Assembly: GCF_900323545.1 (NCBI RefSeq)
Contig: NZ_OOHN01000008.1
Location: 2,788,938-2,852,937, forward strand
Source: Actinomyces sp. Marseille-P3109
GTDB lineage: Bacteria; Actinomycetota; Actinomycetes; Actinomycetales; Actinomycetaceae
Length of the DNA: 64,000 nucleotides
Direction: 5' to 3'
This document shows, one piece after another, positions 4,088 through 13,663 of this stretch. The notes under the pieces are model-generated. The model saw only the letters and a list, made by a program, of their open reading frames with translations, did no database searches and was not told where the DNA came from. Made by a program: the position numbers and the translations under genes. Position 1 is the stretch's first letter. Each line of letters begins with the position of its first letter.

Positions 4088-5896
4088 TCATCGGATGAGT
4101 GCACCACTGTTGTGGAAGTAGAACCGGCCGCCGTCGATCGTGGCCCAGCCGGTGGTCACGGAACCGTTGGGCTGGAGGTAGTACCAGACGCCGTCGACCT
4201 GCTTCCAGCCGGTCGCCATGGAACCGTTGGCGTTGAGGTAGTACCAACGGCCTCCGTCCTTGACCCAGCCGGTTGCCATGGAGCCGTCCGTGTTGAGGTA
4301 GTACCAGACGCCGTCGACCTGCTTCCAGCCGGTCGCGATCGCGCCGTCGGCGTTGGCGTAGTACCAGTGGCCGTCCACGTCCAGCCACTTTCCGGTGGCC
4401 ATTGCGCCGGACTCCTCCAGGTAGTACCACTGTCCGCCGGAGGCGACCCAGCCCTTGGAGGTCATGACACCCTCACCGTTGAAGTGGTACCAGGTGTTGT
4501 CGACCTGCTTCCAGCCGGTGGCGATGGCTCCATCGGCGTTGGCGTAGTACCAGGCGTTGTCGGCGTTCACCCAGCGACCGTCGGCCATGGCGCCGTTTGC
4601 GGGGTCGAGGTAGTAGCGGGTGCCGTCGACGGTGACCAGGCCGGTCTCCATCTTGCCGTCGGCGTTGAAGTGGTACCAGGCGCCGTCGATGGACTTCCAG
4701 GTGCTGGAGGCCAGGTCGCCGTTGGGGTTGGCGTAGTACCAGGTGTCCTTGTCCTTGACCCACTTGTTGGCCTGCATGGCTCCCATGTCGTCGAAGGAGT
4801 ACAGGACGTCCTTGACCTTCTGAGTTCCGGTGACCGCGGCGCCATCGGTGCCGAAGTAGTACCACGTGCCCTCGATCTGGGCCCAGTCCTTCTTCAGCTC
4901 ACCCTTCTCGTAGTAGTAGCGGTGGCCGTCCTTGGTCTCCCAGCCGGTCTTGGGTTCCTCAGGATTGTTGCTGGGGTCGGCCGAAGGGGCTGCGGTGGGG
5001 TCAGCGGACGGTGCGGTGCTGGGGTCGGCCGACGGTGCCGTGCTGGGGTCAGCGGACGGTGCGGTGCTGGGGTTGGCCGACGGTGCTGTGCTGGGGTTGG
5101 CCGACGGCGCCGTGGTGGGGTCAGCGGACGGTGCGGTGCTGGGGTTGGCCGACGGCGCCGTGGTGGGGTCAGCGGACGGTGCGGTGCTGGGGTTGGCCGA
5201 CGGCGCCGTGCTGGGGCTGGCCGACGGTGCGGTGCTGGGGTTGGCCGACGGCGCCGTGCTGGGGCTGGCCGACGGGGCTGCGGTGGGGTCAGCCGACGGC
5301 GCCGTGCTGGGGCTGGCCGACGGGGTTGTGGTGGGCTTGGTGCTGGGCGCCGTGGACGGGGTGGAGGCGGCCTGGGTGATGGCCCACCCCAGCAGGGGGG
5401 CGAGGCCGCCGCCACCCAGCAGGCGACCTCTCAGCCGGCAACACAAACTGACGCCACAACCGCCGCCACCCAGGCCGCCGGGGACACCGCCCAGCAGGGT
5501 GGCGGTGGCCTCGGTGGGCTTGGTGCTGGGCTCCGTCGCGGTGGTCGGCTCCGTGGTGGGCTTGGTCGGCGCTGCGGCGGTTGTGGCGTCAGTCTGTGGT
5601 GCCGGCTGAGAGGTCGCCTGCTGGGTGGAGGTGGCCTCGGTGGGCTTGGTGCTGGGCTCCGTGGACGGGGTGGAGGCGGCCTCGCCCCCCTGCTGGGCGG
5701 TGTCCTCAGTGGCCTGGGTGGCGGTGGTTGTGGCGTCAGTTTGTGTTGCCGGCTGAGAGGTCGCCTGCTGGGTGGCGGCGGCCTCGCCCCCCTGCTGGGT
5801 GGGGCCATCACTCTGGGCCAGGGCTGCGGGACCTGCCAGTCCCACGAGCGTCATCGCCGCGAGTGTGCCGATCATGTATCGGCCAGTGCGCTTCAT
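4088..5896 (-). CDS. Secreted choline/glucan-binding-repeat surface protein, with an inverted segment in its stalk
   Basis: 602 residues. Start taken as the second of two adjacent ATGs (5896), 5 bases from a perfect AAGGAGG. Signal peptide with probable cleavage after ALA at 27. Residues 29-175 are Thr/Gln/Ala/Pro-rich with repeated 'TQQATSQPA-QTDATT' units. About 180-310 is a Pro-Ser-Ala stalk of 8-residue repeats. The C-terminal half is about 13 aromatic repeats of the type G-W-x-x-x-x-x-x-W-Y-Y-x-x-x-x-G-x-M-x-T, the family that binds phosphocholine on teichoic acids or alpha-glucans. No catalytic domain is present, so it is probably an adhesin or matrix-binding protein. Residues 133-173 are Leu/Gly/Cys-rich and foreign to the stalk; they come from an inverted copy of residues 29-70. 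Paralogue of the next gene. Confidence 0.8.
   Translation of the reverse strand: MKRTGRYMIGTLAAMTLVGLAGPAALAQSDGPTQQGGEAAATQQATSQPATQTDATTTATQATEDTAQQGGEAASTPSTEPSTKPTEATSTQQATSQPAPQTDATTAAAPTKPTTEPTTATEPSTKPTEATATLLGGVPGGLGGGGCGVSLCCRLRGRLLGGGGLAPLLGWAITQAASTPSTAPSTKPTTTPSASPSTAPSADPTAAPSASPSTAPSANPSTAPSASPSTAPSANPSTAPSADPTTAPSANPSTAPSADPTTAPSANPSTAPSANPSTAPSADPSTAPSADPSTAPSADPTAAPSADPSNNPEEPKTGWETKDGHRYYYEKGELKKDWAQIEGTWYYFGTDGAAVTGTQKVKDVLYSFDDMGAMQANKWVKDKDTWYYANPNGDLASSTWKSIDGAWYHFNADGKMETGLVTVDGTRYYLDPANGAMADGRWVNADNAWYYANADGAIATGWKQVDNTWYHFNGEGVMTSKGWVASGGQWYYLEESGAMATGKWLDVDGHWYYANADGAIATGWKQVDGVWYYLNTDGSMATGWVKDGGRWYYLNANGSMATGWKQVDGVWYYLQPNGSVTTGWATIDGGRFYFHNSGALIR
4976..5340 (-). 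repeat. 24-bp tandem repeats encoding a PSTAPSAD-type stalk
   Basis: About 15 imperfect in-frame copies of a 24-bp unit encode PSTAPSA(D/N/S). Variation is mainly at the eighth residue and at Ser/Thr of position 2. Arrays like this expand and contract by slippage and set the reach of a surface protein from the cell wall. Confidence 0.8.
5376..5811. repeat. 124-bp inverted repeat within the stalk-coding sequence
   Basis: Left arm 5376-5499 and right arm 5688-5811 are reverse complements with 6 mismatches by hand alignment, separated by 188 bases. The right arm encodes the normal stalk, residues 29-70. The left arm is the same sequence in the opposite orientation, so the minus frame reads it as a Leu/Gly/Cys-rich segment without stops. 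This implies an inversion or fold-back duplication, or an assembly artefact. No recombinase gene is nearby. Confidence 0.85.
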
Positions 5897-6350
5897 CATG
5901 TCCTCCTTGAGGAAATGGTTCTCTTCCTTGTGAACGTCTCCGTCGCAACCGGCCGGTCAACAGTCTTCTCTGGCCTTTTCTCCGGAGGGCGGATACAGAG
6001 AATATACGAGCCCGCGATGCTGTTTAACTAGCTGTTATGCATGGATATGGCATCAGTTTGGTTAAGTTCTTGTGTCTCTTCAAATGGTTATCCGCATGGT
6101 TTATTACGGTTCAACGCATGGAGTAGTCTGTCTCGTTCTCTCGTGGTGCGCTCAGGCGAGGGATTGAAGATCCGTAGAGCGGCAAGCACGGTGCGGCGGG
6201 CTCCTGAAGGCCCTCGATCCCGAGTGTTTCTACATCTGTCACAAAGGCTTTGAGGAACCCCAGCGAGGGGAAGCGAGACTGCATGATCCCGAGGGTCTCG
6301 GACAAGTGCGATCGACGTGCGGGCCTCTTTGCGGCAGATGTGGACACGTA
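5897..6350. other. Promoter region of the first repeat protein and unassigned sequence
   Basis: The part near 5900-6130 is AT-richer than its surroundings and should hold the promoter of the minus-strand gene starting at 5896. From 6150 to 6350 small frames are open on both strands, but none has a recognisable motif, and several run through the downstream palindrome. I see no supportable gene. Confidence 0.4.
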
Positions 6351-6396
6351 GCCCATGGGGTCCCAAGCAAACGCGTTTGCTTGGGACCCCATGGGC
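6351..6396. terminator. Perfect 46-bp palindrome, terminator of the second repeat-protein gene
   Basis: Positions 6351-6373 and 6374-6396 are exact reverse complements with no spacer, so the RNA forms a very stable hairpin. It lies about 70 bases after the stop of the minus-strand gene. Its core GGGGTCCCAAGCAAA matches the hairpin at 4002-4042 that follows the paralogue, so gene and terminator were probably duplicated together. Confidence 0.7.
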
Positions 6397-6466
6397 CTGG
6401 ATCTCGGTCAGTCGCCGGTGGGGCGATCCTCCCGGGACTCATTCAGTTGTGGTGAGTGTGGTCGGG

Positions 6467-8128
6467 TCACCGCTTGGCGGCCCGGAAGCCGGCGGCCACC
6501 GCCTGTGTGTCGGTGGAGAAGCATGCCTCGGGCTTGGTCTCGCTGTAGGACTGGTTCCACGGGTGGTGGTAGATCTTGCTGCTCGCATTGCCCTTGATCG
6601 GGGCCCACGCGGGGCAGCTGTAGCCCCCGTTGTTGACGGTGATCCACCGACCGTTGCCGTCGAAGGCGTAGGTCCAGCCATCGATCGTTCTGGTGGTGCT
6701 GACCAGCATCGCGCCGCTTCCATCGACGTAGAAGGTGCCCTCGATCCACTTCATAGTGGCCATCGCGCCGCCACTGTTGAAGTAGTACCAGGTGCTGCCG
6801 ATCTGCTGCCAGCCGGTGGTCATTGCCCCGTTGCCGCCCAGGTAGTACCAGGTGCCGCCGATCTGCTGCCACCCGGTCGCCATGGTGCCGCCGGCGCCGA
6901 GGTAGTACCAGGTGCTGCCGATCTGCTGCCATCCGCTCGCCATGATGCCGCTGCCGTGGAAGTAGTACCAGGCGCCGCCGATCTGCTGCCAGCCGGTGAC
7001 CATGGCGCCGGTCCCGTCGACGTAGTACCAGTGGCCATCCGGCGAGATCCACTTCCCGGCAGCCATTGCGCCGGAGCCCTCGAGGTAGAACCACTGTCCG
7101 CCGTTGGAGACCCAGGTGCTTGAGCGCATGGCGCCAGTGGTGTCGAAGTAGTACCAGGAACCGTCGACCCGTGCCCAGCCGGTGGTCATCGCCCCGTTGC
7201 CGCCCAGGTAGTACCGGTGGCCGTCCGGTGAGATCCAGCCGGTGCTCATGACGCCGTCGTTATTGAAGTGGAACCAGGTGCCGTCGATCTGCTGCCAGCC
7301 GGTGGCCATGGCGCCGTCGGCGTTGGCGTAGTACCAGTGATCGCTCACCTGCTTCCAGGTGCTCGCGGTCATGGAGCCGTCGTTGTTGAAGTGGTACCAG
7401 CTCGCCCCGACCTTCACCAGGCCGATGGACTTGGCGCCGACTTCGTTGACATAGAACCATTTGTCGCCCAGGTGCAGCCACGTGCTGGTGGCGATGACAC
7501 CGGAACCCTGGACGTAGAAACTGACTCCGTCCTGGTCGATCCACCGGTTGGCCTGCATGACGCCGTCGTTGTCGAAGTAGTAGTCGGCGTTGTCGACGCT
7601 CCGTCTGCCCGTGAGGGCAGCGCCGTGGGCGTCGGCGTAGTACCGCTTGCCCTCCAGTTGCAGCCAGGTGCTGGTCTGCAGGGTGCCGTCGGCGCCGACG
7701 TAGTACTTGCGGCCTCCGTCGAGGACCCAGGTGCTGGTCTTCTTGACGCCGTTCTCGTAGTAGTACAGCTTGCCGTTCTCCTCCCGCCATTCCTTCTTGG
7801 GCTCGGCGGGCGGGTCGGAGGGCCTGTCCGAGGGGGTGGGATCTTCAGAGGGCGCGGCGCTCGGTGCCTCACTCGGTGAAGCAGCGGGCGCGGGAGAGTC
7901 GGAGGGCTGGGCGGAGGGTGCTTCGCTTGCCGCCACGGGTGCCGGGGGAGTGGCGGGAACGGCTGGTGAAGCCTCGGCCGGGGCGACCGGCGGGGCTGCT
8001 GGTTGCTTGGCGACGACGTCGCTTGCCGGGGGTGCGGTTGGCTCTTCGGCTAGAGCGGTGGGACTGGCGAGTCCCACGAGCGTCATCGCTGCGAGCGCGC
8101 CGACCATGGATCGACAGGAGCGCTTCAT
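6467..8128 (-). CDS. Secreted choline/glucan-binding-repeat protein with a C-terminal Cys/His 'sunset'-like domain
   Basis: 553 residues; ATG 5 bases after AAGGAGG. The signal peptide is nearly the same as its neighbour's (MTLVGLA then PTALA, cleavage near 28). A Pro/Ala/Ser/Glu stalk runs to about 115, followed by roughly 18 aromatic W-Y-Y/G-A-M-x-T-G-W repeats (about 110-480). The last about 55 residues differ: CPAWAPIKGNASSKIYHHP, then YSETKPEACFSTDTQAV and AAGFRAAKR. This matches the short extracellular module I know as the sunset domain, related in style to Ada/Excalibur Cys-His modules. It probably binds metal or nucleic acid, but that is not shown. Likely an adhesin or matrix protein; no hydrolase domain. 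Confidence 0.8.
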   Translation of the reverse strand: MKRSCRSMVGALAAMTLVGLASPTALAEEPTAPPASDVVAKQPAAPPVAPAEASPAVPATPPAPVAASEAPSAQPSDSPAPAASPSEAPSAAPSEDPTPSDRPSDPPAEPKKEWREENGKLYYYENGVKKTSTWVLDGGRKYYVGADGTLQTSTWLQLEGKRYYADAHGAALTGRRSVDNADYYFDNDGVMQANRWIDQDGVSFYVQGSGVIATSTWLHLGDKWFYVNEVGAKSIGLVKVGASWYHFNNDGSMTASTWKQVSDHWYYANADGAMATGWQQIDGTWFHFNNDGVMSTGWISPDGHRYYLGGNGAMTTGWARVDGSWYYFDTTGAMRSSTWVSNGGQWFYLEGSGAMAAGKWISPDGHWYYVDGTGAMVTGWQQIGGAWYYFHGSGIMASGWQQIGSTWYYLGAGGTMATGWQQIGGTWYYLGGNGAMTTGWQQIGSTWYYFNSGGAMATMKWIEGTFYVDGSGAMLVSTTRTIDGWTYAFDGNGRWITVNNGGYSCPAWAPIKGNASSKIYHHPWNQSYSETKPEACFSTDTQAVAAGFRAAKR

Positions 8129-8550: not shown

Positions 8551-9630
8551 ATGTCATTCGAAGATGCATTGCTCAACATAGCGAATCGTGTGCAAGATTA
8601 TGCTGGTTCGCTTGAGACGGAAGAAGCTACCAAAAATGCCATCATCATGCCCTTCATTCAGAGTGTTCTAGGCTATGATGTCTTCAATCCGGATGAGGTG
8701 GTGCCTGAGTTTGTTGCCGATGTTGGCAGTCGTAAAGCAGAAAAAATTGACTATGCAATTAAGCGTGAAGAGTCTATACAGATTCTAGTCGAGGCCAAAA
8801 AGATTGGGGAACCCCTATCTCTTGAGCATGCCAGTCAGCTTGTTCGCTACTTTTCAGTTTCTAATGCGCGAATCGGCGTTCTGACTAATGGAAGATATTG
8901 GCAGTTCTACACTGATTTGGACAAGCCAAATATTATGGACTCCAGACCGTTCCTTCGTTTGGATCTTATGAATGTCGACACCTACATTCTTCCAGAGCTG
9001 AAAAAACTCACCAAGGCGACTTTCGATCTTGATTCGGTGTTGACGGCAGCCGAAGAACTCAAGTATGTGTCTTCTACGAAAACCGAGATTGCCCAAACTT
9101 TCAGTAATCCTGACGCTGATTTTGTTCAACTGTTTGCGCGCCGCGTGTATGATGGTGCGCTGACCGCGAAGATGCGAGACTTCTTCCAAGGGGTTGTGGA
9201 GAAGGCGTGTAGGCAGTTCCTTGCGGAGCAAGTTAATGAACGTCTGAAAAATGCTCTCGCCGAATCTACTTCTGTGTCAACAGAAAGTCAAAATGAGGTG
9301 TCTCGAGTAGATGTTGATGTCGAGGATAAAAAAGCTGGTATTGTAACTACCGAGGAGGAGAGACAGGCGTACATGATTGTCCGCGCAATTGTAGCTGTGG
9401 AGATTCCGTTGGAACGTATCGTCGATCGTGACACCAAGAGTTATTTTGGTGTTCTAGTTGACAACTCAAACCGCAAGCCTGTGTGTCGTTTTCATTTTAA
9501 TGGGAAGAGTAAGAAGTACCTTGGTCTGCTTGATGAACACAAGGCAGAGACTCGTCACGAAATTGAGCGACTGGAAGACATTTACCAGTATGCTGAACAG
9601 CTTCGCGAGGCCGCTCGTCGTTATCGGTGA
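8551..9630 (+). CDS. Orphan HsdR-N-type (PD-(D/E)xK) restriction endonuclease-like protein
   Basis: 359 residues; ATG preceded by GAGGAC. The N-terminal half is a type I restriction HsdR N-terminal nuclease fold. Asp67 (KIDYAI) and Glu81-x-Lys83 (VEAKK) give the D...ExK active site, followed by HASQLVRYFS and TNGRYWQFY, typical of this family. There is no helicase motor, and no HsdM or HsdS gene is adjacent. The C-terminal half (about 240-359) is unassigned. Such stand-alone proteins are widespread and are suspected defence nucleases, but their targets are unknown. The gene is strongly AT-rich with A/T-ending codons (27 G+C in the 60 bases at 8761-8820, counted by hand), a clear sign of horizontal transfer. 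Its 3' end overlaps the convergent gene. Confidence 0.8.
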   Translation: MSFEDALLNIANRVQDYAGSLETEEATKNAIIMPFIQSVLGYDVFNPDEVVPEFVADVGSRKAEKIDYAIKREESIQILVEAKKIGEPLSLEHASQLVRYFSVSNARIGVLTNGRYWQFYTDLDKPNIMDSRPFLRLDLMNVDTYILPELKKLTKATFDLDSVLTAAEELKYVSSTKTEIAQTFSNPDADFVQLFARRVYDGALTAKMRDFFQGVVEKACRQFLAEQVNERLKNALAESTSVSTESQNEVSRVDVDVEDKKAGIVTTEEERQAYMIVRAIVAVEIPLERIVDRDTKSYFGVLVDNSNRKPVCRFHFNGKSKKYLGLLDEHKAETRHEIERLEDIYQYAEQLREAARRYR

Positions 9631-12948: not shown

Positions 12949-13663
12949 TCCCACCGGCGCGCCGACCGGCAGGACCGACGGGGCTCCCGGCGCCCCCATC
13001 CGGGTGCTGATCGCCGAGGACCAGGCCCTCCTGCGCACCACACTGGCCGCCCTCCTTCAGCCCGAGCCCGGCATGAGCGTCGTCGGCCTGGCCGAGGACG
13101 GCGCCCGCGCGGTCGCCCTGGCCGCCGAGCTGCGCCCCGACGTCGTCCTCATGGACATCCAGATGCCGGGCCTCACCGGCATCGAGGCCACCAGTCGAAT
13201 CTGCGCCGATCCGGCGCTCGCCGCCACGCGCGTCCTCATCCTCACCATGTTCGAGGTCGACGACTACGTTCTGGGCGCCCTGCGCGCCGGCGCCTGCGGC
13301 TTCCTGCTCAAGGACACCGATCCGCAGTCCCTCGTCGATGCCGTGCGCACCGTCCACGAGGGCCAGTCGCTGCTCAGCCCTCAGGTGCTGGCACGACTCG
13401 TGGCCCGTATGCCGCGCGCGGTGGCGGCCGGAGCCCCCGGCATCGCCCGGGCCGACGACGTCGAGGCCCTCACGCCCCGCCAGCGCGAGGTGCTCCTGCT
13501 CATCGCCCGGGGCCTGTCCAACAGCGAGATCGAGGTCGAGCTCGGCATCACCCGGGCCACCTGCCGCAGCCACATCACCGCGCTCCTGGCCCGCCTCGGT
13601 GCCCGGGACCGCGCCCAGCTCGTCATCGCCGCCTACGAGTCCGGCCTCGTCGACCCCCACTGA
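12941..13663 (+). CDS. Response regulator, NarL/FixJ family
   Basis: 240 residues. The ATG at 12941 overlaps the kinase gene by 8 bases, so translation is coupled. A receiver domain occupies about 20-135 with acidic pocket Glu26/Asp27 and phospho-acceptor Asp72 (VVLMDIQMPG), Thr in LTMFE, and Lys in FLLKDT. The C-terminal LuxR-type helix-turn-helix is about 170-232 (LTPRQREVLLLIARGLSN, EIEVELGITRATCRSHI). It should bind DNA as a dimer after phosphorylation by the adjacent kinase. Targets cannot be read here; no long downstream operon remains, since a hairpin follows directly. Confidence 0.9.
   Translation: MTDPTGAPTGRTDGAPGAPIRVLIAEDQALLRTTLAALLQPEPGMSVVGLAEDGARAVALAAELRPDVVLMDIQMPGLTGIEATSRICADPALAATRVLILTMFEVDDYVLGALRAGACGFLLKDTDPQSLVDAVRTVHEGQSLLSPQVLARLVARMPRAVAAGAPGIARADDVEALTPRQREVLLLIARGLSNSEIEVELGITRATCRSHITALLARLGARDRAQLVIAAYESGLVDPH

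What the first reader, a model, noticed from the sequence alone, without database searches (positions are those of the whole stretch)
5376..5811. Inverted duplication inside the stalk of a surface repeat protein
A 124-bp block (5376-5499) is the reverse complement of 5688-5811 with about 6 mismatches, 188 bases apart. Both lie in the same gene. The upstream copy encodes the normal Thr/Gln-rich stalk (residues 29-70). The downstream copy is read backwards and gives a Leu/Gly/Cys-rich segment (residues 133-173) foreign to the stalk, yet with no stop codon and the frame kept. It could be an invertible switch, a one-off fold-back event or a misassembly. Inversion between the arms would flip 188 bp and change the surface protein.
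Basis: seen in the sequence. Interest (0 to 1): 0.82.

Follow-up and report, generated by a model that had tools for sequence, protein, structure and literature searches.

The report
Inverted copy inside surface-protein stalk
A surface protein gene of an Actinomyces carries a backwards copy of part of its own flexible stalk, most likely a one-off copying accident (or possibly an assembly error), and nothing found here shows that it works as a genetic switch.

Summary
The inverted repeat is exactly as described: 5376-5499 and 5688-5811, 6 mismatches in 124, 188 nt apart, far beyond chance (score 101; maximum 12 in 200 codon shuffles). It lies in a 603-aa protein with a signal-peptide-like start, a Thr/Pro/Ala stalk and choline-binding-type repeats. 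The open frame is no surprise: the backward copy is read in the exact codon-complement phase, open in 248 of 248 stalk windows. The segment begins at a stalk-unit start, with CCC shared at one junction and CAC at the other, as expected if a local replication template switch copied residues ~30-71 backwards. Against a switch: the nearest match to the two recombinase families searched is 118 kb away. Assembly error stays a serious rival: the only other inverted repeat of >=40 nt, >=85% identity and <=1 kb gap in 1.264 Mb of this genome (40%) abuts an 'N' in another stalk, with almost the same spacing (315 against 307). Here there is no N and the arms have diverged. Real one-off event ~0.55, artefact ~0.33, switch ~0.06.

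The parts
4088..5899 (-). CDS, 603 aa: signal-peptide-like start, Thr/Gln/Pro/Ala/Ser stalk (about residues 29-318), choline-binding-type repeat domain
   Evidence: ORF; Pfam PF01473 E 7e-65, PF19127 E 5.3e-56, PF19085 E 2.8e-11; signal peptide and stalk limits by eye
5688..5811 (-). Forward (original) arm, residues ~30-71, directly after the signal peptide
   Evidence: its start resembles the post-signal sequence of orthologues (by eye)
5376..5499 (+). Inverted (derived) arm, residues 134-175 of the minus-strand gene, Leu/Gly/Cys-rich; the sense of the copied stalk is on the + strand
5500..5687 (-). Spacer between the arms; holds a partial forward copy of the same unit (5574-5639)
5574..5639 (-). 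Partial forward stalk unit (unit B), direct repeat of the forward arm at 147-nt spacing
   Evidence: families D9 and I2
5496..5502 (-). 5' junction of the inverted segment in the gene: normal stalk up to CCACCC (5502-5497), then antisense of the forward arm from 5496; shared CCC at 5497-5499
5374..5380 (-). 3' junction of the inverted segment: antisense sequence up to GGGCCATCAC, then stalk CACCCAGGCC; shared CAC at 5376-5378
5371..5816 (.). Potential hairpin with a stem of roughly 120 bp in single-stranded DNA or mRNA
   Evidence: RNA of 5341-5899 -, z -18.7; DNA, z -24.4; predictions only
6467..8128 (-). Neighbouring paralogue, 553 aa, same domain class, no inverted repeat listed in it

Best explanation
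A real, one-off inverted templated duplication in a repetitive, structurally tolerant stalk. While the third stalk unit was being replicated, the growing strand left its template at the CCCAGCAGG motif at the unit start. It then copied about 120-130 nt of the first unit backwards, up to the bases just after the signal peptide, and returned to the stalk at a CAC match. The event was tolerated because every stalk codon read as its reverse complement is a sense codon. The gene therefore stayed open and gained a fairly hydrophobic, Cys-containing ~42-residue segment. Shown: geometry, junctions, phase, openness. Inferred: the replication mechanism, the number of events and neutrality. Possible by-product (inferred only): the mRNA could form a ~120-bp hairpin that RNase III, which the genome appears to encode, might cut.
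For: Arms match over 124 nt with 6 substitutions and no indels. The 5' junction lies at the start of a stalk unit: the stalk reads normally to CCACCC, then continues as the antisense of the first unit, sharing CCC. The 3' junction shares CAC and the normal stalk resumes in frame. The copied block includes the post-signal bases (SDGP codons), whose counterpart in orthologues (L043, L014) follows the signal peptide, so the forward arm is the likelier source (by eye). Codon position 1 pairs with 3 and 2 with 2, so each codon is read as its reverse complement. None of the 290 stalk codons is TTA, CTA or TCA, and 248 of 248 41-codon antisense windows are open in that phase, against 183 and 187 of 248 in the other two (the windows run over the whole stalk, inverted segment included). 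The divergence, with base 5462 shared with unit B rather than unit A, argues for a real, aged sequence rather than a copied read. No N in the window. RNase III family match at C8:660824; RNA fold z -18.7.
Against: The only other arm pair of >=40 nt, >=85% identity and gap <=1 kb in 1.264 Mb of this genome abuts a single N, has almost the same centre spacing (315 against 307) and is also in a stalk. No other strain of this species could be examined. Of 3 orthologues one is complete and lacks the repeat; the other two are cut off or unread (N) in the stalk. The 74-nt identical run is longer than expected for 6 random mismatches (P 0.024 in 20,000 draws), so the arms may be a mosaic, partly homogenised or inaccurately assembled. 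The 5386/5387 difference is a shifted A in a run of C, which could be a sequencing error. In the part of the arm where unit B can be compared, only one base (5462) agrees with B against A. Three-base junction matches are weak. An in-place inversion of a third forward copy also fits the frame.
Confidence: 0.55

Rival explanations
1. Assembly or library artefact: a chimeric or wrongly oriented stretch was built into the repetitive stalk.
For: A 50-nt, 100% inverted repeat at L066 8294-8343 / 8609-8658 begins right after an N at 8608, where the two sides also overlap directly (50 nt, 96%) without being merged. Its centre spacing is 315 against 307 here, and both lie in stalks. Six single Ns occur in 1.264 Mb and 3 of 6 show such a direct overlap, so I read them as contig joins. 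Inverted chimeras, most of them primed at 2-21 complementary nt, were the main artefact of multiple displacement amplification (PMC1855051, outline with abstract read); whether this genome was amplified so is unknown.
Against: No N in the window. The arms differ at 6 of 124 positions, whereas an artefact copied from the neighbouring sequence should be near 100% identical, as at L066. One difference agrees with a third repeat unit. Both flanks are in frame, and the direct repeat across the segment is only 64% identical over 55 nt (family D7), not a near-identical overlap.
Confidence: 0.33
2. Invertible switch: recombination between the arms flips the interior and changes the surface protein.
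For: 74 nt of perfect inverted identity; the frame stays open after flipping the interior; surface-type protein. Intragenic DNA inversions are reported in bacteria (Chanin et al. 2024, seen only as a reference-list entry in PMC11892184).
Against: Nearest recombinase-family match is 118 kb away: 3 resolvase-type (PF00239) and 3 phage-integrase-type (PF00589) matches in the assembly, none in the window; other recombinase families were not searched. Arms of 124 nt with mismatches do not look like the 10-40-nt sites described for invertons (introduction passage of PMC11892184). No second copy of the stalk start in the assembly. Openness after flipping is expected here.
Confidence: 0.06
3. In-place inversion of a pre-existing third forward stalk unit.
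For: Flipping 5376-5499 in silico gives an in-frame stalk sequence that runs on into flank resembling the flank of the first unit. The frame alone would fit by chance one time in three.
Against: It needs a tandem duplication carrying post-signal bases and then an inversion whose ends coincide with the ends of homology. Among 32 pairing centres scanned at the ends, only one (10886, not the required 10875) had a complementary run of 6 nt or more.
Confidence: 0.05

Closest known systems
Replication template-switch mutations (local reverse-complement copying)
   Same: A nearby segment is copied backwards by a replication template switch, which can give a hairpin stem in one event (PMC8794818: outline, abstract and opening text seen).
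   Different: Here ~124 nt with a 188-nt spacer in a bacterial coding stalk; that this is longer than usual is my recollection. No ancestor is available to prove the event.
Template switching between inverted repeats in yeast genes (PMC8604942)
   Same: Changes coding sequence through inverted repeats, homogenising arms and inverting spacers (abstract read).
   Different: There it edits existing short repeats, with up to five neighbouring amino-acid changes in a gene; here it would create a ~42-residue segment.
Intragenic invertons / gene-altering programmed inversions
   Same: Inverted repeats inside a gene whose interior could be flipped with an open frame.
   Different: No match to the two recombinase families searched within 118 kb, long imperfect arms, no flipped allele seen. 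The two papers are known only from a reference list; a look-up by a recalled DOI for one found it not held.
Choline-binding-type repeat surface proteins
   Same: Signal-like start, low-complexity stalk and PF01473/PF19127 repeats.
   Different: A stalk with a backward-coded, Cys-containing segment; choline binding not tested.

Membership tests
Inverton (site-specific invertible element) | Inverted repeats flanking the segment | tested here: met
   but much longer than the 10-40 nt stated in PMC11892184 (passage)
Inverton (site-specific invertible element) | Invertase gene close by | tested here: not met
   No PF00239 or PF00589 match in the window; nearest 118 kb away. A distant enzyme or another family is not excluded
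Inverton (site-specific invertible element) | Both orientations observed | not testable with these tools
   No reads held; the assembly shows one orientation only
Template-switch mutation | Reverse-complement copy of a nearby segment | tested here: met
Template-switch mutation | Short shared bases at both switch points | tested here: met
   CCC and CAC; 3 nt each is weak and could be chance
Template-switch mutation | Known ancestral state lacking the copy | tested here: inconclusive
   One complete orthologue lacks it (L043), but its stalk is too different to serve as the ancestor
Assembly artefact | Arms (near) identical | tested here: not met
   6 of 124 mismatches
Assembly artefact | Adjacent contig join | tested here: not met
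   No N in the window; an unmarked join is not excluded
Choline-binding-type repeat protein | Repeats over the Pfam cut-off | tested here: met
   choline binding itself was not tested

The most novel reading that the evidence does not exclude
The inverted arm is a maintained regulatory feature: the ~120-bp coding hairpin makes the mRNA an RNase III target, or lets the arms recombine at low frequency, so that surface protein amount or stalk chemistry (hydrophilic against Cys/Leu/Gly-rich) varies among cells without a dedicated invertase.
Probability: 0.06. Interest if true: 0.7.

Novelty: new member of a known kind. Interest (0 to 1): 0.25.

Why it matters
If real, it is a clear bacterial example of what looks like a single copying accident adding a chemically foreign ~42-residue segment to a surface protein without breaking it, made possible by the stalk's codon usage. 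It also warns that tight inverted repeats in stalk genes of draft genomes must be checked against contig joins before being called switches.

Tried and rejected
Protein database searches gave no close relative. With the full protein, 424 hits, 120 listed, only the 7996 candidates sharing most words scored. Residues 1-190: none at E<=10 among 7993 candidates scored. Residues 313-470: 172 hits, 120 listed, at most 43% identical, no listed name from Actinomyces. Since orthologues 67-81% identical exist in public genomes and were not listed, absence there says little about other strains. Viral contigs: 51 stretches matched a pattern, none encodes a relative. The DNA search of the genus scored only 12 of up to 247 candidates a genome, so I do not rest an absence on it.

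'Frame kept and no stop' as a sign of selection was rejected: it follows from codon usage. RNA-structure maintenance was rejected as unsupported: of the 6 mismatches only one (5479) would give a G-U pair (worked out by hand). A recurrent stalk phenomenon was not found: 111 loci (349,585 bases, overlaps included) were scanned for arms of at least 35 nt, at least 80%, gap at most 2 kb; 8 loci had hits, all of them this genome's own two sites. In 400 kb from 10 relatives no pair of at least 40 nt had a gap of at most 1 kb; 5 rows with gaps of 1.3-4.4 kb were listed. In some searches and 57 sites pairing with themselves (single hairpins) and overlapping arms were dropped before the count. In-window promoter/terminator scan 5300-6500: nothing found. 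Misassembly was considered, not rejected.

Literature, open-licence papers only: Actinomyces with phase variation, invertible and inversion, 0 papers; inverted duplication with in-frame, bacterial, surface protein and repeat, 1 off-topic paper; further searches.

Full report
Observation. The arms 5376-5499 and 5688-5811 are reverse complements with 6 mismatches, no indels and 188 nt between them, exactly as stated. Extended pairings run to 129 nt at 94.6% or 134 nt at 93%. In 200 codon shuffles of the stalk the best inverted-repeat score was 12; the real stalk scores 101.

The gene. CDS 4088-5899 (-) encodes 603 aa: a signal-peptide-like start (by eye), a stalk to about residue 318 and choline-binding-type repeats (Pfam). 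A paralogue of the same domain class lies at 6467-8128. Of 49 genomes of the genus (own included), 4 have a match to the binding domain at E<=1e-60: own plus three. L043 (ZJ308) is complete and has no such repeat; L044 (oral taxon 170) starts within the stalk; the johnsonii stalk holds a run of N, a gap or a masked stretch.

Why the frame is open. Codon position 1 of the forward arm pairs with position 3 of the inverted arm, and 2 with 2, so every codon is read as its reverse complement. A stop would need TTA, CTA or TCA; the 290 stalk codons contain none. In this phase 248 of 248 sliding 41-codon antisense windows are open, and 183 and 187 of 248 in the other two; the windows cover the whole stalk, inverted segment included. 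Leu, Gly and Cys arise from CAG, ACC/GCC and ACA/GCA. Residues 133-175 hold the protein's only three Cys and have GRAVY 0.88, against -1.19 for residues 29-70.

Origin. Stalk units start with ACC-C-AGCAGG. At the third unit start the sequence instead turns into the antisense of the first unit, sharing CCC; about 120 nt later it returns to CACCCAGGCC, sharing CAC, in frame. The copied block includes the post-signal bases, so the forward arm is the likelier source. The quasi-palindromic motif CCCAGCAGG occurs 7 times in the gene and once elsewhere in the window, against 1.39 expected for the whole window; the copies in the two arms are not independent. One event of local template switching explains all this; an in-place inversion of a forward copy needs two. 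Three-base matches are weak evidence and the ancestral third unit is unknown.

Artefact test. In the window plus 60 stretches of this genome (1.264 Mb) I looked for arms of at least 30 nt, at least 85% identical, with a gap of at most 1500 nt, leaving out single hairpins. Three places came up: this one, L066 8294-8343 / 8609-8658, and L095 (65 nt, 86%, gap 1114). L066 lies in the stalk of a gene with BNR repeat-like domains ('sialidase-like' is recall). Its second arm begins directly after an N, and the two sides of the N overlap by 50 nt at 96%, so I read it as an assembly join artefact. Its centre spacing, 315, resembles 307 here, which raises the artefact probability here. Against it: no N in the window, 6 mismatches in 124, and one of them shared with unit B.

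Switch test. Resolvase-type (PF00239) matches lie at C8 22 kb, 521 kb and 1187 kb, and integrase-type (PF00589) at 948 kb, 1437 kb and 2913 kb; this gene is at 2793-2795 kb. Other recombinase families were not searched. A protein search of the whole assembly showed no second copy of the stalk start beyond the two arms. No reads were available. Flipping the interior leaves the frame open, but so would most inversions here.

Possible consequence. The mRNA segment 5899-5341 folds at -391.7 kcal/mol, z -18.7; the DNA strand z is -24.4. RNase III and SbcD family matches are present. Whether the transcript is cut is untested.

Verdict. A confirmed inverted repeat, most likely a one-off templated inverted copy tolerated by a low-complexity stalk, with assembly error as the main rival. 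Interest is modest.

Noticed in passing
L066:8294-8343 and 8609-8658 (G000:C8 ~2056.3-2056.7 kb): A 50-nt perfect inverted repeat in the stalk of a BNR-domain (sialidase-like) gene starts right after a single N, with overlapping unmerged sequence on the two sides; the reading frame changes there. Looks like an assembly join artefact.
   Followed up: yes
L066:4451-5732 and L123:14941-16219: Identical 1279-nt stretches, each bounded by single Ns. The ORF in the L066 copy has integrase-core (rve) and HTH matches, so probably a transposase placed by scaffolding; its start reads like a fused purine-synthesis gene (by eye).
   Followed up: partly
window 6351-6396: A perfect 46-bp palindrome without spacer in the intergenic region upstream of the gene; no run of T follows it, and the terminator scan did not list it.
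   Followed up: no
L044:1 and L016:1: In oral taxon 170 one contig begins inside the orthologous stalk, and the neighbouring paralogue runs off the end of the fetched stretch of another contig; the stalk start of the orthologue was not found there (one search covered the binding domain only). A hairpin or repeats may be the cause.
   Followed up: partly
L095:11944-12008 and 13123-13187: A 65-nt inverted repeat, 86% identical, gap 1114 nt, in another part of this genome.
   Followed up: no
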